From a virus: a DNA stretch of 21,430 nucleotides. Every line of letters starts with the position of its first letter. The stretch's first letter is position 1. Both the position numbers and the translations under genes were made by a program. The stretch spans positions 1 to 21,430 of the IMG/VR virus record IMGVR_UViG_3300042320_000254; one strand, written 5' to 3'. Shown piece after piece: positions 410 through 14,985 of this stretch. Below the pieces are notes generated by a model. It did no database searches, had not been told where the DNA came from, and saw nothing but the letters and a program-made list of their open reading frames with translations.

Positions 410-985
410 TCAGCACGCGCCGCCGTAGGCCTTCTTAGCAATCCGACCGCCCTTTTTGTGGGTGTCGGCAAGCTTCGTAATGTACGGAGGTTTGGTAGCA
501 GGCACCTTCGGGTACTTCACTGCCTTGCCGTCGTCCTGAAGTCCGCCCTTCTTGAACTTTTGGATAACGCCACCGGTCGCATACTTCTCAATAACGCCGC
601 CGGTTGCATAGGCTGCAACACCACCCGATTTAAGGCCTTTATGCGCCTTGGAAGCAGGCTTGTCCTCGTGGGACTTGAGTTCCTTTTTGATGCCTTTCAT
701 CTCGGCCATTTCGGCCTTGTGCATCGACTTGGACTCAACCTCGCCGCCCTTCTTGCGCATCATTGGACCGCGCATACCGCCTTTAGGCACGGTCATCTTG
801 GGAGCGATACCACGACGTGCTGCCATGGGGATACCACGCTCTGAAGGCTTTGCAGCCGCAGGCATACCCATAGCGTCGGGCATCCCGCCCATCGCTTTAC
901 GTTGCACATGACCACCCTTCTTCAGCTTCAACTCCACTGAAGGCTCGGTGGTCATCATTTTCACCATCGGCTTGAACTGACCCAT
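410..985 (-). CDS. Basic protein made of K-G-G motif repeats (191 aa)
   Basis: The ATG at 985 is chosen because it follows AAGGAGCGGATC, a strong ribosome-binding site; upstream in-frame ATGs would overlap the preceding gene. The protein is very rich in Lys, Gly, Met and Ala. Short repeats recur: KKGGHV (22-27), KKGGEV (79-83), YATGGVIEKYATGGVIQK (126-143), FKKGGL (144-149) and KKGGRI (178-182). No enzyme motif, signal peptide or membrane segment is seen. The same motif type appears between domains of the two giant proteins encoded at 7715-14985. Low complexity and high charge suggest a DNA-binding or packaged internal protein, but this is inference. Confidence 0.75.
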   Translation of the reverse strand: MGQFKPMVKMMTTEPSVELKLKKGGHVQRKAMGGMPDAMGMPAAAKPSERGIPMAARRGIAPKMTVPKGGMRGPMMRKKGGEVESKSMHKAEMAEMKGIKKELKSHEDKPASKAHKGLKSGGVAAYATGGVIEKYATGGVIQKFKKGGLQDDGKAVKYPKVPATKPPYITKLADTHKKGGRIAKKAYGGAC

Positions 986-995
986 GATCCGCTCC

Positions 996-1388
996 TTATG
1001 CGAACGACTTGTAGACAATCGTCACACGGGCAGCGCCTGCACTTGCTGCTGTGCCGGTCTGGCTGAAGGTTACGGTTGCATAGTCAATATCGCTGGTACC
1101 CACGTTAGCCCAGGCACTGTATACGCCGGTCGTAGCGACCGAAGCGCGTCCAGCAGAGCCAACCGAAGTAGCAGCAACAAACGCCGCAGCCGACCCCGTC
1201 TTGCCTACCGTGACCGTGTTGGTCGTACCGGCATTGAAAGCAGTCGTCACGTCGATGTTGACATCAACGATCTGAGCGCCTGCGGGGAGCGTGCCAATGG
1301 TGACCGCGGCGGTGTCCGTATAAGCGATCGTTGCGGTGATCGCCGACAGTACGCCTGCTGCATTAGTCACATTGTTGTTGTACGCCAT
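996..1388 (-). CDS. Beta-rich protein next to the major capsid gene (130 aa), decoration-like
   Basis: The protein is dominated by Ala, Thr, Val and Gly with a regular alternation suited to beta-strands (IAYTDTAAVTIGTLPAG, VTFSQTG) and ends in VTIVYKSFA. It has no Cys and no Trp-rich or catalytic motif. The start is fixed by AGGAG a few bases upstream. Its place directly after the major capsid gene fits a capsid decoration or cement protein, but homology was not tested and a fibre component is possible. The ribosome-binding site lies in the 3' arm of a hairpin (1393-1409), so translation may depend on RNA folding. Confidence 0.7.
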   Translation of the reverse strand: MAYNNNVTNAAGVLSAITATIAYTDTAAVTIGTLPAGAQIVDVNIDVTTAFNAGTTNTVTVGKTGSAAAFVAATSVGSAGRASVATTGVYSAWANVGTSDIDYATVTFSQTGTAASAGAARVTIVYKSFA

Positions 1389-1392
1389 TTTT

Positions 1393-1409
1393 CTCTCCTA
1401 TGAGGAGAG
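1393..1409 (-). promoter_or_regulatory. Hairpin that covers the ribosome-binding site of the 130-aa gene
   Basis: On the minus strand CTCTCCT-CAT-AGGAGAG forms a perfect 7-bp stem with a 3-base loop. Its 3' arm contains the AGGAG used by the gene starting at 1388. The 5' three bases of this stem are also the last three bases of the neighbouring hairpin 1407-1424, so the two cannot both form completely. This suggests, without proving, translational control of the downstream gene. Confidence 0.6.
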
Positions 1410-1424
1410 GGGCCGAAGCCCCTC
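1407..1424 (-). other. Intergenic stem-loop after the capsid gene, C(TTCG)G tetraloop
   Basis: The minus strand reads GAGGGGC-TTCG-GCCCCTC, a 7-bp stem closed by the very stable C(UUCG)G tetraloop in RNA. It starts 6 nt after the TAA stop of the major capsid gene. There is no downstream T-run. It shares its core with the hairpins at 388-403, 19797-19810 and 20131-20144. Likely roles are protection of the abundant capsid message from 3' decay or partial termination. Confidence 0.8.
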
Positions 1425-1430
1425 GCCGGT

Positions 1431-2345
1431 TTAGACGCCAGGAGTACCGTACATGGCACGCGGGTCGGTCCAGCCGATGTCGTAACGCTCGGTGGCCTTG
1501 TAACGCATGGAGTCGGTTTCGAAATCACCTTCCATGGTCTTTTCAAGGGCACGGCGCATCATCAGCTTCATGCCTTCCGGTGCGTCGGTCTGCACCCACC
1601 ATGCGGTAGGCGAGGTCAAACGGCTGATAACCGAAGCGCCCTCGGACAGCAAGCCAATCGATTTGATCGGGTTGATGTCGTTGTTCGCGGTACCAGCACG
1701 CAGAACGCTCTTAAGCAGAACTTCAGCCTGGAAGGTGTTGCCAGGAGCAACAACCAACTTCAGCGGGTTCAAACGGATCTTCTTGCCGTTGTTGTCAACA
1801 GCCTGACGGATCTGGATGAGCATCTGCTCGAGCGACGTTTGCGAAAGGTTCGCAGCGGTCGTAAGCAGGTTGCTGAAGGTGCCCGAGACGATTGGGTGAG
1901 AGGCGGAGTTCAAAGGAACGCCGTCGCCACCGTTATAGCCTGCGGTAAAGGCACGGTTGAGCACGTTGGCTGCCAAGGTCTCCTTGGTCTCGACGAGAGA
2001 CTGTGCGAGGTGCTTAGCATAGACCTGACCAATCCGGATATGGTCGCCGTCTTCCACGAGCACTTTGGTCAGTGCGAAGGCCAAACCATAGACCTTGTAC
2101 ACATAGCGCTTGAGGAAGAGCACGCCGCCCTGCTGATATGTGACGGGAGTGCCGTCAGGCATTTCAGGGGCTGCGCCGAAACCATAAAGGACCGGCTCTT
2201 CGTGGTAGTTACGGGGGATACCGTTTTGCTCACGGAAAACGGTAGACCATTCATCGGCTCTCTGGTCGTAAATGCCGTCGAACGATTCGTTAAGGATCGG
2301 TTCGACAATCGACCGAAAGTCGGTACTGCGCATCGGGGCTGCCAT
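1431..2345 (-). CDS. Major capsid protein (304 aa), HK97-type fold expected
   Basis: Forms the icosahedral shell. The length and layout fit phage major head proteins related to the Mu gpT type. Features seen are an N-terminal segment with repeated aromatic and charged residues, the central run FTAGYNGGDGVPLNSASHP (about 133-151), then NLSQTSLEQML, the KLVVAPGN segment and TAWWVQTDAPEGMKL, and a C-terminal YDIGWTDPRAMYG. The order 'aGYnG-G.pLfs..HP' followed by 'LS..sLe', 'P..LvVa' and 'tAWw' is characteristic of that group. AAGGAGG sits 8 nt before the ATG. It follows the scaffold-like gene and two structural-type genes in the same direction. The fold is inferred from pattern recognition, not from a search. 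Confidence 0.88.
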   Translation of the reverse strand: MAAPMRSTDFRSIVEPILNESFDGIYDQRADEWSTVFREQNGIPRNYHEEPVLYGFGAAPEMPDGTPVTYQQGGVLFLKRYVYKVYGLAFALTKVLVEDGDHIRIGQVYAKHLAQSLVETKETLAANVLNRAFTAGYNGGDGVPLNSASHPIVSGTFSNLLTTAANLSQTSLEQMLIQIRQAVDNNGKKIRLNPLKLVVAPGNTFQAEVLLKSVLRAGTANNDINPIKSIGLLSEGASVISRLTSPTAWWVQTDAPEGMKLMMRRALEKTMEGDFETDSMRYKATERYDIGWTDPRAMYGTPGV

Positions 2346-2358
2346 GATCTAGCCCTCC

Positions 2359-2955
2359 TTAAGCGATGGTTACGGGGTAGGCCTTCGCCGAACCCGTGTA
2401 GATGGCACCGAACTGATGCTCGGCAATCTGGGCACGCACGATGACATAGGTATCGCCCCAAGCATTGTCGGGGTAAGGCGCAATGTCGATCACGCGCATT
2501 TGGGCGGAGGCGTTAGCTGCGGCAGCCGAGGTGCTCAGCATGCAAGCAGAAAGACCTGTGGTCGTGCTTCCGGCGGTCGTCGATGCAAGATCGTATTCCT
2601 GGCCGATCGCGGTTTGTGCGATGGTGGCGTTGGTCTGGATCTCATAAACGATGGCGGGATCGCTGTAGAAATACGCAACGATCTCGGTGGCCGAGGTGGA
2701 AGCAGGCCAGTAGTTGGAAACGCGCCGACGACCCGTGGTGTCGGTGAATTCCACGCCTGCGAAACAGCCCACAAAAGCGTCACCAGCAGCGGCAACAACG
2801 ATAGCGCCGGTGCTGACGTCGATCTTGACAGGCTGACCCTTAAGAATGTTCGTCGCGTAGCCCGACGTAATGCCATTGGCAATTGCTTGCGCACGGTCCA
2901 ACCCGGACGGGTGGAACGCAGGCCGCATGCCGAAGGCAGCAGAGGTAGCACTCAT
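2359..2955 (-). CDS. Structural-type protein upstream of the capsid gene (198 aa)
   Basis: The ATG at 2955 is preferred because it follows CAGGAG and leaves no overlap with the preceding gene; the in-frame upstream ATG would overlap it. The product starts MSATSAAFGMRPAFHPSG. It contains a beta-rich core (ILKGQPVKIDVSTGAIVVAA, FVGCFAGVEFTDTTGRRRVS) and an Ala/Thr/Ser-rich middle. Such beta-barrel-like proteins commonly lie next to capsid genes and may decorate or stabilise the shell. I do not recognise a named family, and the role is inferred from location and composition. Confidence 0.75.
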   Translation of the reverse strand: MSATSAAFGMRPAFHPSGLDRAQAIANGITSGYATNILKGQPVKIDVSTGAIVVAAAGDAFVGCFAGVEFTDTTGRRRVSNYWPASTSATEIVAYFYSDPAIVYEIQTNATIAQTAIGQEYDLASTTAGSTTTGLSACMLSTSAAAANASAQMRVIDIAPYPDNAWGDTYVIVRAQIAEHQFGAIYTGSAKAYPVTIA

Positions 2956-2974
2956 GTTAAAGACTCCTGAGGTC

Positions 2975-3511
2975 TCAACCCTGGAATACCGGGGGTCGAG
3001 TGGGTTGGTCAAAATTCATCCCGTCGCCCTCAACCATCCCAAGCCGTCTGCCGTTTGAGTCGCGTGCGCCTTGCAACTGCTCGACTTGCACCCGGATCTT
3101 CTCCTGCTCTTCCAGGGGCGCCTCGAAGTGAGCCTGCGTCATGTAGTCCTGATAAATGTCCATTGGAAGCTTGAACAAGATCATTTCGTTACATGCTACA
3201 AACCCTGCAAACTCGCCTGCTTTCACTTTTAGATGCTCAAAGCCGGGAAGATCATCAGCTTTAACAGGCTCGTAGCCCAGGCGCATCCGCTTGTGAATCG
3301 GATCATACGAATTGGTAGTCGATAGCCAACAAAGGTGGAAGCCGGGAATCTCCGGCGGTGTCGGGAGAGCCTCCTGTAGCCACTCCGACCGGAACATCTT
3401 GCGACGTTCCTCCGCAAAGGCAAAACCTGCCTCAGGTGCGTCACGCTGTCGATCCTCGGAAGCCCGAGTGCGTCGGCCAGCGTCAGAATTCTTTCTAAGC
3501 CTATCGTCCAT
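2975..3511 (-). CDS. Conserved phage head-region protein of unknown function (178 aa)
   Basis: The start at 3511 is supported by AAAGGAG 6 nt upstream and overlaps the scaffold gene's stop by 11 nt; a start 21 nt earlier lacks a site. The N-terminus is basic and Arg-rich (about 1-40). The core reads IPGFHLCWLSTTNSYD, then RMRLGYEPVKADDLPGFE, VKAGEFAGFVACNEMILFK and a helical C-terminus with EEQEKIRVQVEQLQ. I recognise this pattern from uncharacterised proteins beside capsid genes in proteobacterial phages, where the gene order is also scaffold, this protein, capsid. A role in head assembly is inferred. Confidence 0.75.
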   Translation of the reverse strand: MDDRLRKNSDAGRRTRASEDRQRDAPEAGFAFAEERRKMFRSEWLQEALPTPPEIPGFHLCWLSTTNSYDPIHKRMRLGYEPVKADDLPGFEHLKVKAGEFAGFVACNEMILFKLPMDIYQDYMTQAHFEAPLEEQEKIRVQVEQLQGARDSNGRRLGMVEGDGMNFDQPTRPPVFQG

Positions 3512-4484
3512 TTCCACTCCTTTGTTGTTCACGGTCGAAATCCATGAAGCGTTTGATCATCTTCATGCGTTGTTCCTTGTTGTCCCACATTCCAGCCTCC
3601 TTGATCGCAGCCACCCGCTGGGGTGAGAGTAAAAACTCGTTGCTACTACCTGAGGTGCTCGAACTGGACCGCTCGGAACCCGTTACAACAGAGCGTGGTC
3701 TCGGACGACTATTGCTCTTGCCTTGATTGTAACGATGAGGAAGGTACTTTGACAAGCGTTCATCAAGCTCGTCCCAATACTCTTCGGTTGATGGGTCGTA
3801 TCCCTCTTCGGCCATGGCTTTATCGATCTGAAGTGCTACCTTGGAATCGGTATCGCGGCCCTTGGGGTCGTACCACCGGTTTTTTGACATCCAATCGGAT
3901 GCTAGGCGCTGCATATCGGGGTCCGGGGGCTTAATTCCCGAGGTCTCGATCTGCCTGGAGGCCTGATGCTTGAGGTTTTGCAGCGCTTCGACCTGCCGCT
4001 TGGCCTCGTACATGGCTTCCTGGGCGTTTACCACCCCATCACCGTCGCCTGACTCGACTGCTTCCTTCAATTTCATCTGCGTCCAGCGCAACCGAACGTC
4101 AGCGTCCTCAATAGCCTTGTCCACTCGGGCCATTTCTGCCCCAGAGGTGCGCTTTTCGAGGCTTGCAAGGCGTTCGGCAAGCTCCTGATTCTGCTTTTTG
4201 AGCGAGGAGATCAGGTGATAGTTGTGGCGCTTCTCTTCTTTACCCAATTGCCGCTTAAGCTTGCGCTCTTCGCGCCTTGCGGCTCGAATTGCCTCGCGAT
4301 CGGGGTCCGAAGGGTCGATGTCATCGTCTTCGTTGTTGTTAACAAACCCGTTATGGACCGAAATATCCGGCTCCGGAGGGGTCTGATCGATGGGCTCAAC
4401 GCTATCGGGCAGTTCAACAATGGCCGAGCCATCGTTTGCCTCCTGAACGTTAAGCTGCATTTCTAGCTTGTCGCTTGCATTCAC
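3501..4484 (-). CDS. Scaffold-like head assembly protein (327 aa)
   Basis: A GTG start is used, preceded by GGGAG at 6 nt. The protein shows the usual plan of a scaffolding protein: an acidic disordered N-terminus (about 1-65, with NNNEDDDIDPSDPDRE), a long charged helical/coiled-coil section (about 65-190, KQNQELAERLASLEK, ALQNLKHQASRQIE), then a Trp/Tyr-containing section, a Ser-rich low-complexity stretch near 270-285, and a basic C-terminal helix (MKMIKRFMDFDREQQR) of the sort that contacts capsid protein. It lies between the co-chaperonin and capsid genes. No protease domain is visible, so it probably exits or recycles rather than self-cleaving. Function is inferred from composition and position. 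Confidence 0.8.
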   Translation of the reverse strand: MNASDKLEMQLNVQEANDGSAIVELPDSVEPIDQTPPEPDISVHNGFVNNNEDDDIDPSDPDREAIRAARREERKLKRQLGKEEKRHNYHLISSLKKQNQELAERLASLEKRTSGAEMARVDKAIEDADVRLRWTQMKLKEAVESGDGDGVVNAQEAMYEAKRQVEALQNLKHQASRQIETSGIKPPDPDMQRLASDWMSKNRWYDPKGRDTDSKVALQIDKAMAEEGYDPSTEEYWDELDERLSKYLPHRYNQGKSNSRPRPRSVVTGSERSSSSTSGSSNEFLLSPQRVAAIKEAGMWDNKEQRMKMIKRFMDFDREQQRSGNGR

Positions 4485-4500
4485 GGTTTTCTCCCAAAAC

Positions 4501-4917
4501 CTAGATGTAAATGTGCATCGTCAAGGGGTCCATCGTGACCTTGGCGATGATCTCGTGGTCGTTGAAGATGCAAAACAGCGCCTTTTCATCGCTTCCGGGT
4601 ACCGCAACCTCCCATCGATCCCCGCCCCACTTGGGAACGCGGACGAATTCGCCGATTTCGCACCATGAGCCTTCCGGCCATGGGTCCATCGAGTCGCGTT
4701 TACGGAAAGCAAGGGGGCCGATAGCAATAACCTTGGCCACTTGGCTGTTCCACTTCTCAACCTCTTTGGTCTCTTCGACCAAAACGATGCCCGAAGACGT
4801 CGTTTTCTTCTTGGGCGACTTGATCTGAACGAGCAATCGAGCGCCTAAGGGTGCTGCACCTGGGTGAACTTCAGGAAATGCTTCCCGAATCGCCGCTTCA
4901 TTCGAAGCGTTAGTCAT
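4501..4917 (-). CDS. Phage-encoded GroES-like co-chaperonin (138 aa)
   Basis: Lid of the GroEL folding chamber in the cytoplasm, probably helping fold phage capsid protein. The order of elements is that of the Cpn10 family: P-L-G-A-R-L-L-V (23-30), a basic mobile loop ending in T-T-S-S-G-I-V-L (39-46) whose IVL tripeptide matches the GroEL-binding one, the strand KVIAIGPLAF (62-71), W-C-E-I-G-E-F-V-R-V-P (85-95), and a C-terminal DHEIIAKV. It is longer than bacterial GroES (about 97 aa), with an extra N-terminus and an insertion around PWPEGSW, as seen in phage versions. GGAGG precedes the ATG. It overlaps the preceding small gene by 8 nt and is followed at once by the scaffold gene. Confidence 0.9.
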   Translation of the reverse strand: MTNASNEAAIREAFPEVHPGAAPLGARLLVQIKSPKKKTTSSGIVLVEETKEVEKWNSQVAKVIAIGPLAFRKRDSMDPWPEGSWCEIGEFVRVPKWGGDRWEVAVPGSDEKALFCIFNDHEIIAKVTMDPLTMHIYI

Positions 4918-5092
4918 ACTGATCCTCCGTTAAAAGTTGGTCGATAGCCTTCAGAGCTTGTTCAAGCCCTCGGTATTCACCTACGAGGCGCTGATACACC
5001 TCGTAACTGTTGGCATTACCGTTCGCCAAGGAGGTTGCAATATCAGCCTGCAACCCCTTGATGATCCCGATAAGCTGAGAAAAGTCGTTCAT
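4910..5092 (-). CDS. Small helical hypothetical protein (60 aa)
   Basis: Not recognised. The protein is predicted mostly helical (MNDFSQLIGIIKGLQADIATS; YRGLEQALKAIDQLL) with an acidic end, TEDQYD. The ATG overlaps the stop of the 51-aa gene as ATGA, and its own stop overlaps the co-chaperonin gene, so all three are probably translated together. AAGGA lies about 13 nt upstream and translational coupling may matter more. Confidence 0.65.
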   Translation of the reverse strand: MNDFSQLIGIIKGLQADIATSLANGNANSYEVYQRLVGEYRGLEQALKAIDQLLTEDQYD

Positions 5093-5244
5093 TTGCGCTT
5101 AAGTGCTTCCTTCTCGTAGGGGCGCAGGTTGGGCGACTCATCCTTTTTCTTGTTGGGCATAGGACGGCCGCCGTTCTTAAGCTTTTGGCCGGTCAGCTTT
5201 TCGCCCATGGCAAGACGCTTGTGCATGTTGATTGCTTCGCTCAT
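5089..5244 (-). CDS. Small basic hypothetical protein (51 aa)
   Basis: A short frame from ATG at 5244 to TGA at 5089. The product begins MSEAINMHKRLAMGEKL, has a basic Gly-Gly stretch LKNGGRPMPNKKK, and ends YEKEALKRK. The ribosome-binding GGAG lies inside the last codons of the portal gene, 7 nt before the ATG, and the stop overlaps the next start as ATGA. The NGGRPMP segment loosely recalls the Lys-Gly-Gly motif of larger proteins here. Function unknown; tight packing and a good binding site argue that it is real. Confidence 0.7.
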   Translation of the reverse strand: MSEAINMHKRLAMGEKLTGQKLKNGGRPMPNKKKDESPNLRPYEKEALKRK

Positions 5245-5246
5245 TT

Positions 5247-7730
5247 TCAAACTCCAAAGGTTCGTTGTGCAGCCTCTTGCGCGGCCATAGCGGTGCGCTC
5301 TTGCTCTTGGGTGAGTGCTGCGTTCTCACCGGCAATTTTTGCCGCCTCGATCTGCTGGCGGGTAAGGTTATCCTCGACGTTCATTGCGATGTCGGCCTGG
5401 ATCTTCTGGGCGTTTTGCGCCACGTCGGTATCTTGCTTTTCCTTCTTCAGCATGAGTTCGCCCTGATCCTTTTGGGCTCGGCGCTGGGTCTCTGCCACCG
5501 AAGTCTGAACAAGGGCCTCGACCTCCGGCGGTACCGGTGGCTTGGGCTGCATTTGCTGCGCGATCTGCATAAGCTGCTGGAGGATCGGCATCATCGGCTC
5601 GAAGGTCTCGGCCGAGTCGATATGGACGTGCCTTGCAACCGCGGACATGAGTTGCTGGGCCTCCTCGAAGATCGGCGTGACCTTCAGGGTATCCATGTCC
5701 TTGACCTCGGTGGCGTTGATGTACTCGCTCATCCGTTTGAGGTACCAGAGCGTTAAGTGCTGCTTGGCGTGTTCAAGCATGGCCGGTACGAACTTCTGTC
5801 CGATGATTGGGTTCATGCCGTAGACAGGGTCCATAGCGTAGGCCAAGTGCGTCTGCAAGTGCGCGATATGGTCCTGGTTCGGGAAGGCTGCGACCGGCTG
5901 CCCAAGGGACATGGCCACGTTCTCGAGCGCAGGGTTCATCTCCTTGACTTCGCGGACATCCGGCAGGACCTGATTGATCTCGGGCACCTTCATCTGCTTC
6001 AAGATCCGCTTCATGACCTCCCGGCGATCAAATAAGTCGGGATTGTCCTTAGCGAGTGCAGCCAGGGCTTGGTTTTGGGCAAAGCGTTGGGTCTCGCTGA
6101 AGATATGCGGATCAGAGACGGGGACGATGTCGGTGTTGCGGTCAAAGTCCTGGCGGCCAATGACGAGGTCCTCGACCATATCGCCCTTGCGCATATCCTC
6201 GAGCCACCAGCGATTGATCCTGCCAAGGACCATCAGCATCTTGCGCATGGACTTGTGCAGTCTCATGTGGATGCTGGAGTAAACCGCGGCGCCTTGCTCG
6301 ATCAAAGCCTGGGTAGTTCCGACCGGTGCGTTGTTGGATATATCAGCGATCTTCTCTTCGCTCGTTGTTACGACGCCCTTGGCCGCGTTGGTAATCCAGC
6401 CCAGCAACTCGAAGAGCACGGGCGATGGCGGATTGAAGGGGAAGGGCATGGCGATCTTCTTAATATCGTCAACGCCTGGGGCTCCCTCGATCTCGGCAAC
6501 CTGGGTCGGCTCAACCTGCACGCTCTGGCCTGTTATACGGGCTCCCTTGAGCTTGAGCATGGTCGGTGAGTTATTGATATGGGCAGAGTCTAAAAGGGCT
6601 CTCAGGGCCCCTGTAAGGGCCGCAGACAAGCCTCCAATCAACTGGGGCAAACCGATCGCATAAGCACCGCGCCAAGGGATAAATTTGAACTCGATGAGCC
6701 AGTCGAGCTTTTGCATCTGCTCGTCGCCCTCTTCCCAGTTACGGTAAAGGCCGACCACCTGCCGGGACTGCTCGTCGATCATCAGGATGTAAGGAGCAAG
6801 GTCGCCATTCGACTTTTCGTCATCATCGATCGTGAGGTTGACGTAGGAATGGAAGACGCGGCGCTCACCGTCGATGTTCTCGCTGGTCGACTTCTTGCCC
6901 TCGATTTTCTCGTTAGCCTTTTGCGCGGCCGTTGGCTCGGGCTCCATACTGGCGCGGGTATAGGTAACGTCCAGGTAAAGGTTTGCAGCGATCCGGCGGT
7001 TGAACTCCTCCTCGGATATGTCCTGCATTTCGGTACAACGCTGGGCGGTGTAAAAGCTTGGCGCGGAGAAGGGCAGCAGGATCTTATCGATAGGCACGAA
7101 CTCGGCGCAGGGGCGCTTCTTTTGCTCGTCATACCAAAGTTTCAGGTACTGGCTGCCACCGAGTGGTAGCTGAGTAGCAAGCTGCTCGAGTTCATCGCGA
7201 AGCTCTTCGATCTGCTCGGTACACTGCCAGTTCATGAAGTCGCGCTTACGCTCGGCAACATCCTGCTTTTGCTCGGTAACATCGCCAAGGATTTTTGTGC
7301 CTACAGGGCCATCAGGCGGCATGATCTCTTTCATGCACCGGCTGGCAAAATCCACGCAGGCTTCGGCAATTACTGGGTGTACAGCCTTGGATGCGCCCTG
7401 GAAGGTTGCACCGCCTGGAGCCTCATTACCAAGACCTGACCGCTTTAAGCCTTCCTCGTACTGCTTATCGCGCTCCTTACGAGCCTCCATGTCTTTCTCG
7501 AATAGCTCGAGGTACTTCAGAGCGAGGTCGTCCAGGGTGTTTGGATCGATCTTGGCTGCAAGGTTTTCATAGAACTGCGGATCTTCTTCGGGCCCGTCGT
7601 TCTCGGTCATGCGGACAACAGCCGACCCGTCCTCGAGTTCTTCGACGTCGGGCTTCTCGTCAAATAGCTTGTAGATCGTCTCGTCGCCCTCGGGGCTTTC
7701 CTCAAGGGGTAGATTCATTTCGATCGCCAT
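5247..7730 (-). CDS. Portal protein (827 aa), P22-like long type
   Basis: Forms the dodecameric ring at one capsid vertex through which DNA is packed and ejected. The size (about 700-830 aa) and placement before the head assembly genes fit the P22-type family. The N-terminal part is acidic. The core includes the segments GATFQGASKAVHPVIAEACV (about 107-126), FVPIDKILLPFSA, IEFKFIPWRGAYAIGLPQLI, and the long helix region GGLSAALTGALRALLDSAHI, followed by TSPT-like and PVGTTQALIEQGAAVYSSIH segments. The C-terminal 120 residues are Gln/Ala/Lys-rich and probably coiled-coil, like the portal barrel. GAGGAA precedes the ATG, which overlaps the upstream gene by 16 nt. Confidence 0.9.
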   Translation of the reverse strand: MAIEMNLPLEESPEGDETIYKLFDEKPDVEELEDGSAVVRMTENDGPEEDPQFYENLAAKIDPNTLDDLALKYLELFEKDMEARKERDKQYEEGLKRSGLGNEAPGGATFQGASKAVHPVIAEACVDFASRCMKEIMPPDGPVGTKILGDVTEQKQDVAERKRDFMNWQCTEQIEELRDELEQLATQLPLGGSQYLKLWYDEQKKRPCAEFVPIDKILLPFSAPSFYTAQRCTEMQDISEEEFNRRIAANLYLDVTYTRASMEPEPTAAQKANEKIEGKKSTSENIDGERRVFHSYVNLTIDDDEKSNGDLAPYILMIDEQSRQVVGLYRNWEEGDEQMQKLDWLIEFKFIPWRGAYAIGLPQLIGGLSAALTGALRALLDSAHINNSPTMLKLKGARITGQSVQVEPTQVAEIEGAPGVDDIKKIAMPFPFNPPSPVLFELLGWITNAAKGVVTTSEEKIADISNNAPVGTTQALIEQGAAVYSSIHMRLHKSMRKMLMVLGRINRWWLEDMRKGDMVEDLVIGRQDFDRNTDIVPVSDPHIFSETQRFAQNQALAALAKDNPDLFDRREVMKRILKQMKVPEINQVLPDVREVKEMNPALENVAMSLGQPVAAFPNQDHIAHLQTHLAYAMDPVYGMNPIIGQKFVPAMLEHAKQHLTLWYLKRMSEYINATEVKDMDTLKVTPIFEEAQQLMSAVARHVHIDSAETFEPMMPILQQLMQIAQQMQPKPPVPPEVEALVQTSVAETQRRAQKDQGELMLKKEKQDTDVAQNAQKIQADIAMNVEDNLTRQQIEAAKIAGENAALTQEQERTAMAAQEAAQRTFGV

Positions 7731-10700
7731 GATTTCCTCATCATTTCAAGACGCATAGCGTCGGTATCGGGCTCTCCGCCCTCTTTGTAGCCACGCAACG
7801 CCCTCATAAGATCTTCGTGGGTCGTCTTCTCGTCGGCTACTTTATCCCAGACCGCGTGGTGCGCTAGGTGCTGGTAATACGGGTCAAGCGATGGATCAAT
7901 ATCAAGGCCAAGTGCAGACTGCCTAGCCGCCAAGCGATCGACCGCCTCACGAGCGCCCAGCCCCTTACCCCTTTGCATCATCGTCTGGGGGGCTACAGGG
8001 CTCTCCAGGGAGTGCAGGTTAAGCTGTCTTGCGTCCAGGGTAGGTAAGTCTCCACGACCCAGCATCGAGCCTATAAAGCCGCTTTTAGCGCCTGCTATGC
8101 CCTTAATGCTTTCGGCCCAGTCGCGGTACTCATCAGCCGATCCGACAAGCGCCTGCTGCATTTGCGGGACCAGGGTCGACATGTTGTTGACGCCATACCG
8201 AAGCTGCTCGGTAAGCTGGTTGGCTTTGCCGAAGGGTGCGAACTTGGCCCGAATGTCGTCCAGGGCTTTCTCGTTGACCACGCCCTTCTCGGCGTCGTCG
8301 AGGAACTTCTGCCCCTGCTTGGAGCCCAGCCATTCAGCGAAGGCGCCCTCCGGCCTTACCAGCCCTTCGGTCTTCGGTACCTTCAAGCCTGCCTTGGTTG
8401 CCGTGTCATGGGATAGACCGCCGCGGCCAATGCTCGACTGCGTAATACCGTAGGCCTTAATCAGGTCCCGGACTCCGAGGTTACCGGCAGCGGCCCGCTT
8501 GCCCTGCTCAATCATAAAGTCTCCGTACCCACGCTGGATGTAATCCGGAACCTCGGCAAGATTAAGCTGCTTGTTAACCTCGGCCAGGGGCCTCCACTGC
8601 CACTCCTGGATCTTGGTGGCCTGGGGGTCTTGAAACTTGGCGATAGCCTCGGCCGCACGCTTGAGCTTCTTTGCACCGCCTGCCGCCATTTTCACCACCC
8701 CTCCATGTTTATACGGGATGGGCTGGCTAAATTTCTCACGGATCTCGGGGGTGATGTCGAACCCGATCTGGTCCATGGACTTTGACTTGCTGTACAACTC
8801 GTCAAGGTATTGCTCGGCCCTTTCGAGGCTTCGGAATCCAGGATGATCTGGTATCGCAATGTCGGTATCAGCATCGACCACATAGTACCGATCGCCTTGT
8901 AGCGAAACATCAAGCGGCCGTTGTTGCGTAATGCCTGGGATAGTCCGGACATTGTCCTTGCCAACCAGAGCCTTGAGCCTGCCAGGGATGATCTCGTCAT
9001 AGAACTTGCGCATTCCTGCCTCGGTGGACTCGCCATCGGCACCTTGAGGAAAGCGCAAGAAAGACTTGTGGCCGTCAATGAACGCAACGCGGTCGTAGCC
9101 CTCATCGACTGCACGCTTGATGATGTTCTTCAGGGACAGGTCAACCCACTCGTTGGTGTTCTTAACGAATGGCCCTGGCGGCGGACCATTTCGCTGCACA
9201 TCTTTAACAGCGATCATCTTTTCACGAATTTCTTGCAACTTTTCAACCAGTGCGCCGTATTCACTATCAGACCATGGAGCATTACCCCCCTCCATTGCTA
9301 TCTGTTTATCAAGTATGTCGCTCATCTCTGCGGACAGCTTTTCATATTGATTATCGACTTCGGGCCCCTTAAATCCAGACCGGCCCTTTTGCGCCCAGTC
9401 AGACTGAAGCTCCTCAATGAAAAGCACGTTCTTGCCTTCAGCGTCCACACGGTCATTCATCCTGATATGAGAAATGACGTTTGGATCTGACCAGTGCGGC
9501 GATCGAAACGCAGGATTTGCCTTACGCGAGGCAAATTCAATGTCGTAATCGGTTAACTTATCTTCAGGTTGAGAATTTAAGATTACCCGCGCCTCTTCCT
9601 CGCTGACCCTTTTAACCGGTACTTTAAGCAGGATCTCGCGGTAGTTCTTGCCCCCAGGTTCTTGGTAATCGTGAAATTCGGTCAGCCGCTCCCCAGGCTT
9701 GGTGCCATAGCTGTGAGTCCGGCTGAACTTGTTGATGTCCTCTTCGGCCTTCATCGCAAACTCGGCGGCATCGAGGTCGTTCTCCGCAAGAGCTTTCTTA
9801 TAACGCTCATCGGCAATCTTGCGCAACTGATTAATCTGCCTGTAATCGTTGACATCGAGGTTGGGCATATGCAGGTTGGCAAACCCTTTCATGTAGGGCG
9901 GTATGACAGACCTGCTCAGGACCACCTCTTCGACGTCGGGCATCGTGCCCTTGGTCATAGCCTGAACTTCCTCACGCGTGACGTTGGGCGCGGCAGCAAG
10001 CTTTTGAGCTAGGCCCGCATCCTCGAGGCGCTGCTTGCTGATACCTGCCTTGGTGAACTCATTGAGGAAGGCCTGCCCTGGCCCTTGCTTGCGCTGCAAG
10101 GCGGTGGCCATCTCTTCGATCGGGTTGTAAAAGCCAAGCTTGCTGACAGGTGCGTTGACGTTCAGTGGCGCTAACATGCTCAGAGCGTTGCCAAGCGGGC
10201 CTTCGCCAAACATGGCGCGATCGACTTGCTCGAGGCCTGTCCTGCCCAGTGCTGTGGCACCGCGTGTAATGGCTTGGGTTGCAGGCTTAACGAATGGCGT
10301 AACCATGCCGCCGATGTCTGTCAGTGCGCCGACATTGCGGCCAATCTCGCGCAGGTTTGCCTGCGATTGCTGGCGCTGTGGCGAACCTTCCATGATGCTG
10401 CCGGTGTAAGGCACCTGCTCTTCAGTGCTACCAAACAAGCCCGTAGCAAAGCCGCGGCTAAGCGCACCGAGTGGTGTCTCAGGCGTGGAGTCGCGCATCT
10501 GCTTTTGCTTGGCAGCCTTGGCGGCCATGGGATTGAAGTTGAACATCTGGGTGGGGTCGCCACCATTGCTCATACGAACCAATCCACCCTTGCGATACTC
10601 TTGCTGGCCCTTGTCGAAGAAATTAGACCGGACAAGAGGCGTGAGACTCGTATAACCGCCACCAAGATCTTCGTCTTCCTGTACGGGCTGCACGGGCTCC

Positions 10701-11890
10701 TGGTTTTCGGTGATGTTCCGAATATTCTGGGCGATGTCCTGAACTTGGCCACCAATCTCAGGCTGCTTCAGAATGGATGCGAAAGCATTGGCGGTTTCGC
10801 CGACTTGCGCAGGCGTTACCCCCTCCAGGCCTTGTAACTGCTCCATACCAAGCCGTAGGGAGCCGAGCCCCGATTGAGGTACAAGGCTGGGAACATCCTG
10901 CAACGTGCTAAGGGTTGCTTCAAAAGAAGCAGGATCGTAAGCCTGCAAGTTGCGTAGCGATTGGACTGGATCGATGTCGCCGGTGATTTGATCGACAGAC
11001 ATCAGCCTAGCAAGCCCTTGGTTTAGAGCGTTGCTTTCCTGCGAAGCGATCGACTGATCAAGCGCTGCTAACTCGGGCGTGGCCGCTACTTGATTACGAT
11101 CAAAGCGGTCAATCATTTCAACGACGCCAGGGTCTGCAAAGCCTGCGCCAAGCCCTTTATCACTTAAACCCGGGGTGTAATCAAGTGGGTTTGCACCTGT
11201 TACAGCCGCGTTGCTTGTTAGCTGCGAAAAAGGCTGAATGTCAGCGGGAGCGCCTAATAAATCCTCTTTCCATTTTGGGAATTCCTCATTCCATACCTCT
11301 GCTTTTATATCTCTTGGCTGATCAACGGCCGATTCGGTCATCGTATAAGCCAGCGGGTTTTGCAGCACATTCACAAAGGTTGAGGCCAGCGCAGGGTTCT
11401 CATAAACCTGCCACGCAGCTTCGTCAATCTCTTGGCGATTAAGCTTATCTAATGGGTCCGAACCGTGGTACTTAGGCACTGAGTCAAAGCTGTTAGGTCC
11501 TGAAGGCTGCGTTTGACTAACCAACTCCGAAAGACCGCTTGTCAAGGCGTCAACATATTCAGGATCAAGATCCTTGATGCGACCAAGCAATTCTGCTGGC
11601 GACTGGACATCGGCGATGTACTCGCCGATTTTTGGTGTGTAAATGCGATCCAGACCCTTTAATAAATTCCAAGTGTCCTCTTCAGGGAGGATTGTTAAGT
11701 CTTCGTTGAATTGGCTTAAAGGCGATCCGCTATCCCTTGAGTTGTAACGCGCCATTTGATCAATTGCTTCGTCAGCAAGCAAAGGCTTATCGGTTACGTC
11801 ACCGCCGCCCTGCATGCGAATAGGTTCACCCTTGGACTTCTTCGCGGCCTTCTTGGGCAGGTTGGCAGTGAACGGGTTGATCGGTTTCAT
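7715..11890 (-). CDS. Giant multidomain 'polyvalent-type' virion-associated protein (1391 aa)
   Basis: No single family covers the protein. Residues 1-430 are largely helical and not recognised. The linker RKGGLVRMSNGG (433-444) leads to a Gly/Ala-rich helical segment (445-600). Residues about 725-980 contain YGTKPGERLTEFHDYQ, KNYREILLKVP, HWSDPNVISHIRMNDR, LFIEELQSDWAQKGR and EGYDRVAFIDG. I recognise this order from domains of very large phage polyvalent proteins, thought to be injected with DNA. A second linker KHGGVVKMAAGG (1061-1072) leads to a C-terminal module (1090-1365) with LGRGDLPTLDARQLNLH and YYQHLAHHAVWDKV. The start overlaps the previous stop as ATGA, and the place between terminase and portal matches such proteins. 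Catalytic activity is not established. Confidence 0.8.
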   Translation of the reverse strand: MKPINPFTANLPKKAAKKSKGEPIRMQGGGDVTDKPLLADEAIDQMARYNSRDSGSPLSQFNEDLTILPEEDTWNLLKGLDRIYTPKIGEYIADVQSPAELLGRIKDLDPEYVDALTSGLSELVSQTQPSGPNSFDSVPKYHGSDPLDKLNRQEIDEAAWQVYENPALASTFVNVLQNPLAYTMTESAVDQPRDIKAEVWNEEFPKWKEDLLGAPADIQPFSQLTSNAAVTGANPLDYTPGLSDKGLGAGFADPGVVEMIDRFDRNQVAATPELAALDQSIASQESNALNQGLARLMSVDQITGDIDPVQSLRNLQAYDPASFEATLSTLQDVPSLVPQSGLGSLRLGMEQLQGLEGVTPAQVGETANAFASILKQPEIGGQVQDIAQNIRNITENQEPVQPVQEDEDLGGGYTSLTPLVRSNFFDKGQQEYRKGGLVRMSNGGDPTQMFNFNPMAAKAAKQKQMRDSTPETPLGALSRGFATGLFGSTEEQVPYTGSIMEGSPQRQQSQANLREIGRNVGALTDIGGMVTPFVKPATQAITRGATALGRTGLEQVDRAMFGEGPLGNALSMLAPLNVNAPVSKLGFYNPIEEMATALQRKQGPGQAFLNEFTKAGISKQRLEDAGLAQKLAAAPNVTREEVQAMTKGTMPDVEEVVLSRSVIPPYMKGFANLHMPNLDVNDYRQINQLRKIADERYKKALAENDLDAAEFAMKAEEDINKFSRTHSYGTKPGERLTEFHDYQEPGGKNYREILLKVPVKRVSEEEARVILNSQPEDKLTDYDIEFASRKANPAFRSPHWSDPNVISHIRMNDRVDAEGKNVLFIEELQSDWAQKGRSGFKGPEVDNQYEKLSAEMSDILDKQIAMEGGNAPWSDSEYGALVEKLQEIREKMIAVKDVQRNGPPPGPFVKNTNEWVDLSLKNIIKRAVDEGYDRVAFIDGHKSFLRFPQGADGESTEAGMRKFYDEIIPGRLKALVGKDNVRTIPGITQQRPLDVSLQGDRYYVVDADTDIAIPDHPGFRSLERAEQYLDELYSKSKSMDQIGFDITPEIREKFSQPIPYKHGGVVKMAAGGAKKLKRAAEAIAKFQDPQATKIQEWQWRPLAEVNKQLNLAEVPDYIQRGYGDFMIEQGKRAAAGNLGVRDLIKAYGITQSSIGRGGLSHDTATKAGLKVPKTEGLVRPEGAFAEWLGSKQGQKFLDDAEKGVVNEKALDDIRAKFAPFGKANQLTEQLRYGVNNMSTLVPQMQQALVGSADEYRDWAESIKGIAGAKSGFIGSMLGRGDLPTLDARQLNLHSLESPVAPQTMMQRGKGLGAREAVDRLAARQSALGLDIDPSLDPYYQHLAHHAVWDKVADEKTTHEDLMRALRGYKEGGEPDTDAMRLEMMRKSWRSK

Positions 11891-14800
11891 TTGCGCCCTT
11901 TCACTATGCCGCCCTTCTTCTTGCTCAGCTTGACGCCCTGGACGTCGGAGCCTTTGGGCGCGATTAGTAAGGATTCGTAAACGTCGTGGGGCATCTTGCT
12001 CGACTTCATGGACATGCGCCCAACGATGTCGCCGATCCCGAAGACATCGCCCTGGCTCTTCGGCCTAAGGGTTGGGTTGTCGCCCGTCATGGTATTGAAC
12101 ATTTCGGCAGGCGTGGCGTACTCAGTGGCCAGCCCGTACTTGTGTCCCATGCCCGATTGCTCGATGGCCACGAGGAAGTCCAGGTCCTTGAGGATTGGAT
12201 CGCCTTCGGTCTCGTAAAGCTGTTTGCGCACGAGGTTTGACTTGGTGATCGAGCCCTTCTTGCGGTCGCCAATGGTGAGGTCTGTTTCCTTCTCGGCGCT
12301 CATCATGGGCCTGCCGGTATTCGGGTTGATCAGTACACCGACGTCCTGCATGACCTTCTTGTCCATGACCTCGCCGGTACGCGGGTTCACGAAGGCGCCC
12401 GAGTAAAAGTCCGAGCGCTTCATGTTGTTGACCTCGAGAACCTTCTCGACAAGCTTTTGCACGTTCGGGTTGTTCTTGGGGTCAAGGAACCACCGGCTAG
12501 GCATCGGCAGGAGGTTGACGCGATCGGGCTGGGACAGCCTGCTTGCGATGTCCATAGTGGGGTCGATGGCCGACGTGATGGTCTGCTTGGCAGGCTTAGC
12601 AAGGGCCTGGAGACCGCTTACTATGGCCTTGCCGCCTGCCTGCATCTTCTTGATCTTGCCGCCCTTCTTGTAGCCAGCCTTCTGAAGCTTGGTTAGTAGC
12701 TCTTCGGATAGGAACTGGGAAGGCGCATAGCCTCGAGTCCAGTCCATGTACCCAGGCTGACGACCCTTCTCGGTAAGGACCTTGTTAATGTAGTCCTCCA
12801 TTAGCAGTTCTCGTGGCGCAGGCATGAAGCTGACGCCAAGATCCTCGCCTTTGAGGATGGTCGGGAAGGCCGGGTGAAGGTCGGGCCTGTCCATCATCTC
12901 GCCGCTAAGCTGGAAGAGGCGGTTGCCAAGCGAACCTGTCGGCACTTCCAAGAGCGCCGGATCTGTCGTGCGCTGAATGATCCGATCGTAATCGAAGATC
13001 TGACCTTTCTTACCGCCAACGCCGATACCGCCCATGACGTCAGCAGCGGCTGCGCGTTTGTCGAAGGTGTCGACAAGCTTGCGGAACTTCCTGGGGTTCG
13101 TAATGTCGACGTCGGCCGGGAATAGGTTCTTGCCCTCCTTATCGACCACCGAGGCAAGCTTTGCGTTCAGGGTGTCCTTGAGTTCGGGCGTGAGCTTTTC
13201 TTGCTTAACGCCGCCCATAAACTCCTTGTAGAGGCGGTCGAATACCATCTGGTTCGACTTGTGCTGCGTCGGCGTTCCAAGCATGGTCGTCCAGATCGCT
13301 TGGCCTTCAGGCACGCGGCGATTGGACCCTATGATGGTCTGCCCCACTCCAGGCGTCTTAACGCCCCAGGTCGCACCGGCATAACGCGGATCGGTAAGCT
13401 GAATACCTGAGAATCCCGGACCACCAAGAAAGCCCTCTCCGACTTTAGTTCTATCGGCCTGGGTGATCATCAGTGTCTTGCCTTCGTGCTTGCCTAAAGC
13501 TTCGGACGGCAGGATGAGACCGGACTCGGTGACCTCCAGAATTCTCTTCTCGACGTCCTTGGGCATTTCCATGTTCAAGCCAGTCTTGCCCTGGAAGCTC
13601 TGACCAGGAAGAGCCCTAAAAGCCTTCTCGGCGGCCTTCTTGGCCAAACCGCCGCCTGCCATGCTTACGAGGCCGCCTCGAGCACCGCCCTGGTAATTAC
13701 CCGGATCGTCCGGCTTAGCTGTAGGTACGATCGGCGTCGTTGAGTCTGCCGTGATGGTTGCTGGGCTGGTAATCGTTGGGCTGGTAACCGTCGGACTGGT
13801 CGTCGTAGATCCCGCAGGCGGGACGTAGGTCGACAGCTTGGGTGCCAGGGCATTCAGGCGTGCGGTCTTAGCGGCTGCCAACTGGTTTTGCCGTTGCAGG
13901 CGGAGCGCGTCTTGGTTGGCAAACTGAGCGGCTCGGTTTTGGGCCATCAGGTTCGAAGCTGCATCCCTTGCTACGGACTGCTGTCTCATTTGGCCCAGGC
14001 CTGTCGCCATGGGATTAAGACCTTTATAGGGAACTCCGCCAGCAGCCATGCCGGGAGCCGCCCTCCAGCCCTGACCTCCAGTTGCGTCGTCATTGCTCGA
14101 TCCGTCTACCAGACCGCCGCGTGCGAAACCGCGACCAGACATGTCCTGAGCCACGCTCGGGTCGTAGATTGCATAAGCCTTGCCCGTTGCGTTGGGCATT
14201 TGAGTACCGGCAAAGCCAGCGTCGAGGATCTCTTGGCGGATCATATCCTTTCCGATCCCAGGCTTGACCATGGCCTGCCTGCGCAGCATGTCGTAGTAGT
14301 CAAGGCCTTCCATTTGGCCCTGGGGCGTGTCGTACATCTTGTCGAACATCAGCATCCGGTTGCGATCAACGTCGACAGGCGTGACGTTAGCTCCAGGCTG
14401 ATTGCCGGTGAACTTGTTGGCGTACCGGGGAAGCTCTGCCGTGTAAAATGCGCGGCCCATCGAGGCGTGGGGATCTGCCCTCATGATGTCGAACTTGCCC
14501 TCGATCGGGATACGCTGGCCAGAGTAGACGCGCATGAAGTCGGGCTCGGGCCCCTTAAGCACCTCGGCTACCGGCTTGGGCGCCTTGGGCATCATGGACT
14601 CGACCTTCTGCATGTTGTTTAGCCTGCCTGCCATCTTTTGCAGTGCAGCATTGGTCCCAGCCCCTCCGGCCATCGATGCAGGGACCGACCCGAAGGTCTG
14701 GCCCATCTGGGCCGTGTGAGCGCGGTCAGGCTGCGTTAAAGGGTTTGGGGTCATGCCTCGTAAGGCGTGGCTCATTTCTTCGCTTGTAGGCCCTTGTAGG

Positions 14801-14985
14801 CCCCTTGCAAGCATGGCTGGCATGAAGCCTGCCGTCTTGATGTTGCTTAGCGCCTGGGTGATGTCGCCTGCCGTACCCAAGCCTTCTGCCAGGGCGCCTC
14901 GTACCGCACCGCGGCCCATGTCGGCTAGGCCTTGCAGGGCCTGGGGGATGAACGTCGGATTCTTCTGGGCGCGTGGGTTTGGCAT
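11887..14985 (-). CDS. Giant multidomain polyvalent-type protein with ADP-ribosyltransferase-like module (1032 aa)
   Basis: Residues about 148-285 resemble the ADP-ribosyltransferase-like fold found in phage MuF-type proteins: MRVYSGQ, then MGRAFYTAELPRYANKF, NVTPVDVDRNRMLMFDKM, DAGFAGTQM and AYAIYDPS. Whether the active residues are kept cannot be judged. RGGLV (289-293) and RGGLVSMAGGGL (436-447) flank a Gln/Ala section and a Thr/Ser/Pro linker (393-422). A second module (465-770) includes ALGKHEGKTLMITQADRTKV, GGPGFSGIQL and QHKSNQMVFDRL. KKGGKIKKMQAGG (773-785) leads to a third module (800-1012) with MGHKYGLATEYATPAEMF and KSQGDVFGIGDIVGR. The end is KKKGGIVKGRK. A weak AGGGA precedes the ATG. 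Likely delivered or assembled with the virion, by analogy. Confidence 0.8.
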   Translation of the reverse strand: MPNPRAQKNPTFIPQALQGLADMGRGAVRGALAEGLGTAGDITQALSNIKTAGFMPAMLARGLQGPTSEEMSHALRGMTPNPLTQPDRAHTAQMGQTFGSVPASMAGGAGTNAALQKMAGRLNNMQKVESMMPKAPKPVAEVLKGPEPDFMRVYSGQRIPIEGKFDIMRADPHASMGRAFYTAELPRYANKFTGNQPGANVTPVDVDRNRMLMFDKMYDTPQGQMEGLDYYDMLRRQAMVKPGIGKDMIRQEILDAGFAGTQMPNATGKAYAIYDPSVAQDMSGRGFARGGLVDGSSNDDATGGQGWRAAPGMAAGGVPYKGLNPMATGLGQMRQQSVARDAASNLMAQNRAAQFANQDALRLQRQNQLAAAKTARLNALAPKLSTYVPPAGSTTTSPTVTSPTITSPATITADSTTPIVPTAKPDDPGNYQGGARGGLVSMAGGGLAKKAAEKAFRALPGQSFQGKTGLNMEMPKDVEKRILEVTESGLILPSEALGKHEGKTLMITQADRTKVGEGFLGGPGFSGIQLTDPRYAGATWGVKTPGVGQTIIGSNRRVPEGQAIWTTMLGTPTQHKSNQMVFDRLYKEFMGGVKQEKLTPELKDTLNAKLASVVDKEGKNLFPADVDITNPRKFRKLVDTFDKRAAAADVMGGIGVGGKKGQIFDYDRIIQRTTDPALLEVPTGSLGNRLFQLSGEMMDRPDLHPAFPTILKGEDLGVSFMPAPRELLMEDYINKVLTEKGRQPGYMDWTRGYAPSQFLSEELLTKLQKAGYKKGGKIKKMQAGGKAIVSGLQALAKPAKQTITSAIDPTMDIASRLSQPDRVNLLPMPSRWFLDPKNNPNVQKLVEKVLEVNNMKRSDFYSGAFVNPRTGEVMDKKVMQDVGVLINPNTGRPMMSAEKETDLTIGDRKKGSITKSNLVRKQLYETEGDPILKDLDFLVAIEQSGMGHKYGLATEYATPAEMFNTMTGDNPTLRPKSQGDVFGIGDIVGRMSMKSSKMPHDVYESLLIAPKGSDVQGVKLSKKKGGIVKGRK

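What the first reader, a model, noticed from the sequence alone, without database searches (positions are those of the whole stretch)
410..14985. Recurring K-x-G-G-x-V-x-M-x-x-G-G motif in three virion-region proteins, placed between modules
Seen: RKGGLVRMSNGG and KHGGVVKMAAGG in the 1391-aa protein; RGGLVSMAGGGL, KKGGKIKKMQAGG and a terminal KKKGGIVKG in the 1032-aa protein; many copies (KKGGHV, KKGGEV, ATGGVIEK, KKGGRI) in the 191-aa basic protein. In the large proteins each copy sits at a boundary between recognisable modules. Inference: the motif may be a processing site, a packaging or docking tag bound by one partner, or a scar of gene fusion. I know of no assigned function.
Basis: partly seen in the sequence, partly recalled or inferred. 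Interest (0 to 1): 0.65.

Follow-up and report, generated by a model that had tools for sequence, protein, structure and literature searches.

The report
Shared peptide tag on phage proteins
A family of uncultured short-tailed phages marks the end of each module of its giant, probably injected, effector proteins with the same short peptide, which also fills a second head-region protein, so it probably works as an address label that loads proteins into the virus particle.

Summary
The motif is real and far above chance: about 0.01 copies expected in the window's three proteins, 5 strict copies found. It is a peptide-level motif, not a DNA repeat. Unbiased logos sharpen it to [Y/F/M/L]-[K/A]-x-G-G-x-[V/I]; the trailing M-x-x-G-G is optional. 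The core is the same in the giants and in the basic repeat protein (99 and 143 copies against 1.5 and 0.5 expected) and absent from portal, capsid and terminase in the main panel.

A 12-13-residue pattern search of IMG/VR led back to this one virion-gene cluster in 206 of 237 contigs, against 3 of 22 controls. The motif sits in two syntenic slots: terL-portal and MCP-adaptor.

In the giants (polyvalent-protein relatives: ART, GNAT, LPD23) it marks module ends. Alignment boundaries cluster on it 6-fold, and sites internal here are natural C-termini in relatives (KKGGRVK-stop).

Best reading: a virion docking or packaging tag on cargo modules, with internal copies left by fusion. Location and selection are shown; docking is inferred (about 0.55). 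A cleavage site, pure scar or DNA tether is less likely. The partner is unknown. The tag is not universal: most slot-1 enzymes in a marine clade lack it, and most cultured relatives show little or none.

The parts
11887..14985 (-). 1032-aa giant protein of the terL-portal slot (polyvalent-type)
   Evidence: ORF; relatives with 58-98% identity in 25 viral loci; relatives carry LPD23
7715..11890 (-). 1391-aa giant protein of the terL-portal slot (polyvalent-type)
   Evidence: ORF; 52 viral loci; near relative L003 keeps an ART-PolyVal module absent here; Foldseek to ART-PolyVal/LPD phage proteins
410..1018 (-). basic repeat protein of the MCP-adaptor slot, about 10 motif copies, loose ones included ('hub' class)
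   Evidence: family of 31 non-redundant relatives has 143 copies against 0.5 expected
14086..14130 (-). motif GFARGGLVDGSSNDD (1032-aa protein, residue 286), degenerate: core only
   Evidence: GG invariant and F/A/V mostly kept across homologues
13645..13689 (-). motif GGARGGLVSMAGGGL (residue 433)
   Evidence: conservation 0.88 against 0.69 in flanks
12631..12675 (-). motif GYKKGGKIKKMQAGG (residue 771)
   Evidence: conservation 0.95 against 0.75 in flanks; is the natural C-terminus in L022, L026, L180, L216
11890..11925 (-). C-terminal motif SKKKGGIVKGRK of the 1032-aa protein
   Evidence: K K K G G x V invariant in 13 homologues
11798..11836 (-). half motif EPIRMQGGG at the N-terminus of the 1391-aa protein; the remainder of TKAEGGLIRMQGGG after loss of a 198-aa ART module relative to L003
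   Evidence: sequence comparison with L003, 1589 aa
10556..10600 (-). motif EYRKGGLVRMSNGGD (1391-aa protein, residue 431)
   Evidence: lies in a low-confidence stretch of the model
8672..8716 (-). motif PYKHGGVVKMAAGGA (residue 1059)
   Evidence: begins where the folded domain ends; lies near the C-terminus in L046
7718..7789 (-). C-terminal tag YKEGGEPDTDAMRLEMMRKSWRSK (GG followed by a predicted helix)
   Evidence: helix 966-980 of the modelled fragment, low confidence; same C-tail in many slot-1 relatives
884..928 (-). hub copy KLKKGGHVQRKAMGG
716..760 (-). hub copy MRKKGGEVESKSMHK
569..613 (-). hub copies AYATGGVIEKYATGG
419..463 (-). hub C-terminal copy THKKGGRIAKKAYGG
5247..7730 (-). 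portal (no motif); downstream border of slot 1
   Evidence: PHROG portal 2.5e-19; 0 motifs in 76 non-redundant portals
1431..2345 (-). major capsid protein (no motif); upstream border of slot 2
   Evidence: Phage_capsid_4 1.8e-12

Best explanation
The motif is a short linear peptide, [YFML]-[KA]-x-G-G-x-[VI], often followed by M-x-x-G-G or by a short amphipathic helix. It serves as a docking or encapsidation tag. Originally it is the C-terminal tail of each protein or module that must enter the virion: polyvalent-type effector modules encoded between terL and portal, and the basic repeat protein encoded after the capsid gene. When tagged modules fuse into giants, the old tails stay behind as inter-module linkers, so each module remains tagged. 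A common component of the procapsid in this phage lineage (scaffold, portal or capsid interior are the candidates) would bind the tags, load the cargo before DNA packaging, and let it be ejected with the DNA. Shown: the motif, its selection, its restriction to this gene cluster and its position at module ends. Inferred: virion location, binding and ejection.
For: Enrichment and restriction (99 against 1.45 and 143 against 0.5; zero in portal, MCP, terL, GroES, decoration and p185 families of that panel). One shared core in two unrelated protein classes. Pattern-only retrieval leads back to one virion cluster in 206/237 against 3/22 controls, Fisher p about 1e-12, in two syntenic slots. Same module internal here, C-terminal with the tag in L022, L026, L180, L216 and L046. 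Alignment boundaries within 10 aa of motifs 17.4% against 2.8%. In motif-blind contigs of two portal clades 18/18 slot-1 proteins end in the tag. Within a clade the tail is kept although the last module differs, e.g. L083/L085/L086/L087. SLiM-like conservation with variable x positions. Motif just outside the fold. Codons differ between copies. Relatives carry ART-PolyVal, GNAT and LPD23, domains of the kinds that Iyer et al. 2017 (PMC5512222) describe in polyvalent proteins, many of them predicted to be packaged and injected. Some scaffold and putative ejection-protein relatives carry single copies.
Against: No binding partner identified and no virion proteomics for any tagged phage. In a marine portal clade slot 1 is mostly empty and only 2 of about 18 slot-1 ORFs are tagged; several of the others look like ordinary enzymes. 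Cultured relatives KcrB, CRP-901, QDWS535 and Pag-Yong1 show no convincing motif set, so the virion does not need it. Tail similarity follows portal relatedness only weakly over all pairs (Spearman 0.17). The wider slot-1 count (49/59) includes contigs chosen by the motif.
Confidence: 0.55

Rival explanations
1. Processing site: a protease cuts at the GG of each motif, separating the modules of a polyprotein during head maturation or after injection (as adenovirus and ASFV proteases cut after GG; from memory).
For: Copies sit exactly between modules and outside folds; the recurring M-x-x-G-G resembles GG-X cleavage sites; some relatives carry HExxH domains; DdrB of phage P1 is processed before packaging (PMC5512222).
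Against: No protease recognised among the late-gene products searched with Pfam; HExxH in only 14/98 large motif proteins and none in the window's three; the motif is often the extreme C-terminus, e.g. KKGGRVK-stop; the basic repeat protein would be shredded; M-x-x-G-G is not the conserved part.
Confidence: 0.17
2. Neutral fusion scar or flexible linker: gene fusion repeatedly joins modules at leftover C-terminal tails, and the remaining Gly-rich peptides have no present function.
For: Module boundaries coincide with motifs; the window protein has lost a whole ART module up to a half motif.
Against: Y/F, K, GG and V are kept while x positions drift; codons vary but the peptide does not; the hub protein multiplies the motif without being a fusion of enzymes.
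Confidence: 0.12
3. Nucleic-acid tether: Lys-Gly-Gly repeats bind the packaged DNA, so the giants and the basic protein ride with the genome.
For: Many copies are Lys-rich and the hub protein is 22% K+R.
Against: Neutral or acidic forms are common in the giants (YKDGGAVHMQDGG, YAEGGAV); the invariant residues are Y, GG and V rather than charge.
Confidence: 0.09
4. Mimic of the terminase C-tail that docks on the portal: TerL in one clade ends with RFRxGGFI.
For: 91 copies of a loosened motif in TerL of motif-blind contigs.
Against: That stretch follows the DDxVD segment common in TerL nuclease domains (from memory); the window's own TerL has LRDMGWLVID while its giants carry the tag, so the two do not covary.
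Confidence: 0.03

Closest known systems
Polyvalent proteins of phages (Iyer et al. 2017, PMC5512222)
   Same: Large multidomain proteins with ART, GNAT and LPD domains, encoded among virion genes and predicted to be packaged and injected
   Different: A recurring tag at module ends was not found in the passages searched in that paper; here it links the giants to a separate repeat protein
Phage T4 capsid targeting sequence of internal proteins
   Same: Short peptide that sends internal proteins into the prohead (function from memory)
   Different: T4's is N-terminal and removed by the prohead protease (from memory); this one is C-terminal or between modules, reiterated, and no protease was recognised
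Cargo-loading peptides of encapsulins
   Same: C-terminal peptide that docks cargo inside an HK97-fold shell (from memory)
   Different: Different consensus; not reiterated between modules; docking not shown here
KGG stress-induced repeat (GsiB type)
   Same: Repeats a Lys-Gly-Gly tripeptide
   Different: No Pfam match in the basic protein; different surrounding consensus and context

Membership tests
Phage polyvalent proteins | two or more (often catalytic) domains in one long chain | tested here: met
   ART-PolyVal 2.3e-6 (28.9 bits, cutoff 31.2) in L003; LPD23 1e-9 above cutoff in L019; GNAT PF00583 above cutoff in L060. The window's own copies have no Pfam domain above cutoff but match ART-PolyVal/LPD phage proteins by fold.
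Phage polyvalent proteins | encoded with virion genes of a terminase-portal phage | tested here: met
   between terL and portal
Phage polyvalent proteins | packaged in the virion and injected | not testable with these tools
   needs virion proteomics
T4-type capsid targeting sequence | N-terminal location | tested here: not met
   tag lies at C-termini or between modules
T4-type capsid targeting sequence | cleavage by a prohead protease of the phage | tested here: inconclusive
   no protease recognised among the late-gene products searched; divergent proteases could be missed and not every late gene was scanned
Encapsulin cargo-loading peptide | C-terminal peptide binding the inner face of an HK97-fold shell | not testable with these tools
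KGG repeat family (PF10685) | match to the family profile | tested here: not met
   0 Pfam families in the basic protein at E<=0.1

The most novel reading that the evidence does not exclude
A lineage-wide, modular 'loading tag' for phage virions: one short peptide recruits different cargo proteins into the head, is retained at each module when cargo fuses into polyproteins, and can be used to predict the injected effectors of uncultured phages from sequence alone.
Probability: 0.45. Interest if true: 0.82.

Novelty: new variant of a known kind. Interest (0 to 1): 0.63.

Why it matters
How large effector proteins are loaded into phage heads is known for few phages. A common tag would give a sequence signature for virion cargo in an abundant group of uncultured phages, explain how multidomain polyvalent proteins arise (fusion of already tagged modules), and offer a simple handle for testing protein packaging. 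If it proves to be a cleavage site instead, it would reveal a polyprotein strategy in tailed phages.

Tried and rejected
Two first DNA patterns were out of frame by one base; the second was kept as a control. tblastn with a tag peptide in INPHARED found nothing. The AlphaFold model of the 1032-aa protein is useless (pLDDT 32). PDB fold search gave nothing below 1e-3. A motif-blind marine portal sample did not extend the slot-1 tag: slot 1 is mostly empty there, and those contigs mostly stop soon after the capsid gene. DNA repeat or recombination site: rejected as the main reading, because copies use different codons. TerL-tail mimicry: considered, no covariation. 'Hub is the receptor': the genomes G006/G008 have the slot-1 tag without the hub. 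Literature: no paper found for a KGG motif of phage virions in the held open-access library; subscription papers were not searched.

Full report
Observation. The window is a fragment of a probably short-tailed phage with the gene order terS, terL, 1032 aa, 1391 aa, portal, GroES-like, scaffold, p185, decoration, MCP, p130, basic protein. The strict pattern gives 5 copies in the three proteins against about 0.01 in residue shuffles and none in the ten other proteins tested. In 113 loci fetched by homology there are 97 copies in 67 proteins against 0.45.

Sharpening the motif. I anchored only on GGx[VIL] in the giant and repeat-protein families and measured the other positions. Position -3 is Y, F, M or L (1.1 and 2.7 bits) and position -2 is K or A (0.75 and 1.7 bits), in both classes independently. 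So the core is [YFML]-[KA]-x-G-G-x-[VI]. M-x-x-G-G is a frequent extension. Homologous sites show the same rule: at residue 1060 of the 1391-aa protein Y, K, G, G and V are invariant while the x positions are 0.40 and 0.55; at residue 772 of the 1032-aa protein the motif is 0.95 conserved against 0.75 in the flanks. Not every site beats its flanks: the sites at 287, 433 and 1060 are average or below in mean conservation, because only the core positions are kept. Copies use different codons for the same residues, so the peptide is kept, not the DNA.

Where it occurs. With the refined core, non-redundant giants have 99 copies (1.45 expected) and the repeat-protein family 143 (0.5 expected); portal, MCP, terL, GroES, decoration and p185 have none in that panel. 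I then searched IMG/VR with the motif alone, as an in-frame degenerate DNA pattern. Of 237 contigs (the two sets may overlap slightly), 206 carry at least one virion gene related to this phage's and 135 carry two or more; of 22 control contigs from a frame-shifted pattern of similar size the numbers are 3 and 0 (Fisher p about 1e-12). The 36-bit pattern has only 9 hits in 257 Gb of prokaryote genomes. In the contigs the motif genes lie in two slots of one operon: between terL and portal, and between MCP and the tail adaptor.

Module ends. Relatives of the giants are mosaic. Internal boundaries of pairwise alignments fall within 10 aa of a motif in 17.4% of cases against 2.8% for random positions; these alignments are not independent of each other. 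The same module that is followed by YKKGGKIKKMQAGG inside the window's 1032-aa protein ends the whole protein in four relatives: AGYKKGGRVK-stop, GYAHGGSVSKPDTDQMKYELLRGK-stop, GYAEGGKVSGLSAIEKV-stop and GYADGGSVSGLSVLEKV-stop; the module before KHGGVVKMAAGG is C-terminal in L046. In L003, a near relative of the 1391-aa protein, an ART-PolyVal module (residues 42-206) precedes AEGGLIRMQGGG; the window protein lacks that module and keeps IRMQGGG. The usable AlphaFold model (residues 411-1391, mean pLDDT 57) has a folded part at 583-1059, and confidence falls at residue 1060, where YKHGGVVKMAAGG begins; the motif at 433 is in a low-confidence stretch, and the C-terminal YKEGGEPDTDAMRLEMMRKSWRSK is GG plus a helix, also at low confidence.

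C-terminal tag. In contigs fetched by portal homology, blind to the motif, all 18 slot-1 proteins of two clades end in [Y/F/K]xxGGxV plus a short tail such as GGSVxVEDPVIIEHKLKLMGLI or GGAVKYDPSEIEQLVAQMREEFHA. Within a clade the tail is kept while the last module changes. Over a wider set, partly chosen by the motif, 49 of 59 slot-1 proteins have GGx[VILM] in the last 50 residues against 24% of internal windows and 26 of 208 other proteins. Against generality: in a marine portal clade slot 1 is mostly empty, and of about 18 ORFs there only two are tagged; several of the rest look like oxygenases, HNH-type or small accessory proteins (these names are my reading of the sequences). This shows that genomic position alone does not create the tag. 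Cultured relatives by MCP (Caulobacter KcrB and kin, Roseobacter CRP-901/902, Pelagibacter HTVC023P/027P, Planktothrix Pag-Yong1, Alcaligenes QDWS535) have little or nothing in the five that I examined, and the four without a tag set (KcrB, CRP-901, Pag-Yong1, QDWS535) have no slot-1 gene.

What it does. The giants resemble polyvalent proteins: relatives carry ART-PolyVal, GNAT and LPD23, and the fold search finds ART-PolyVal and LPD phage proteins. Iyer et al. predict that such proteins are packaged and injected (PMC5512222). A peptide shared by these giants, a basic repeat protein and, in some relatives, scaffold and a putative ejection protein is best read as a ligand for one common virion component, i.e. 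a loading tag. This step is inference. Cleavage remains possible, but no protease was recognised among the late-gene products searched and HExxH occurs in only 14 of 98 large motif proteins.

Noticed in passing
L347, L361, L396, L487, L413 and other marine contigs: A second C-terminal signature often follows the KGG motif in small head-region proteins: RGxGxAxxGxxFxxR or RADGIAxxGKTRGxxx; forms of it also occur in the cultured Pelagibacter phage HTVC023P.
   Followed up: partly
L418-L497, end of terL: TerL of a marine clade ends with a conserved RFR(K/R/Q)GG[FY][IVL] stretch resembling the tag.
   Followed up: partly
L170, L228, L244, L259 scaffold N-terminal parts: Scaffold proteins of some relatives carry one copy of the core motif (e.g. 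EMASGGEVDADAE), absent from the window's scaffold.
   Followed up: partly
L414 (Caulobacter phage KcrB) 26190-27929: The putative ejection protein ends in RYMDGGRV, a possible lone tag in a phage that otherwise lacks the motif.
   Followed up: no
window 4501-4917: GroES-like co-chaperonin between portal and scaffold genes, conserved through the lineage.
   Followed up: no
L019, L058, L078, L080: Relatives of the 1032-aa protein carry an HExxH metallopeptidase-like module (with LPD23 in L019) at the position where the window has a different module.
   Followed up: partly
L114-L116 (contig IMGVR_UViG_3300034064_000176, 58,639 bases): The contig has the start of terL at both ends, so it is probably a complete genome of about 57 kb of a near relative of the window's phage.
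   Followed up: no
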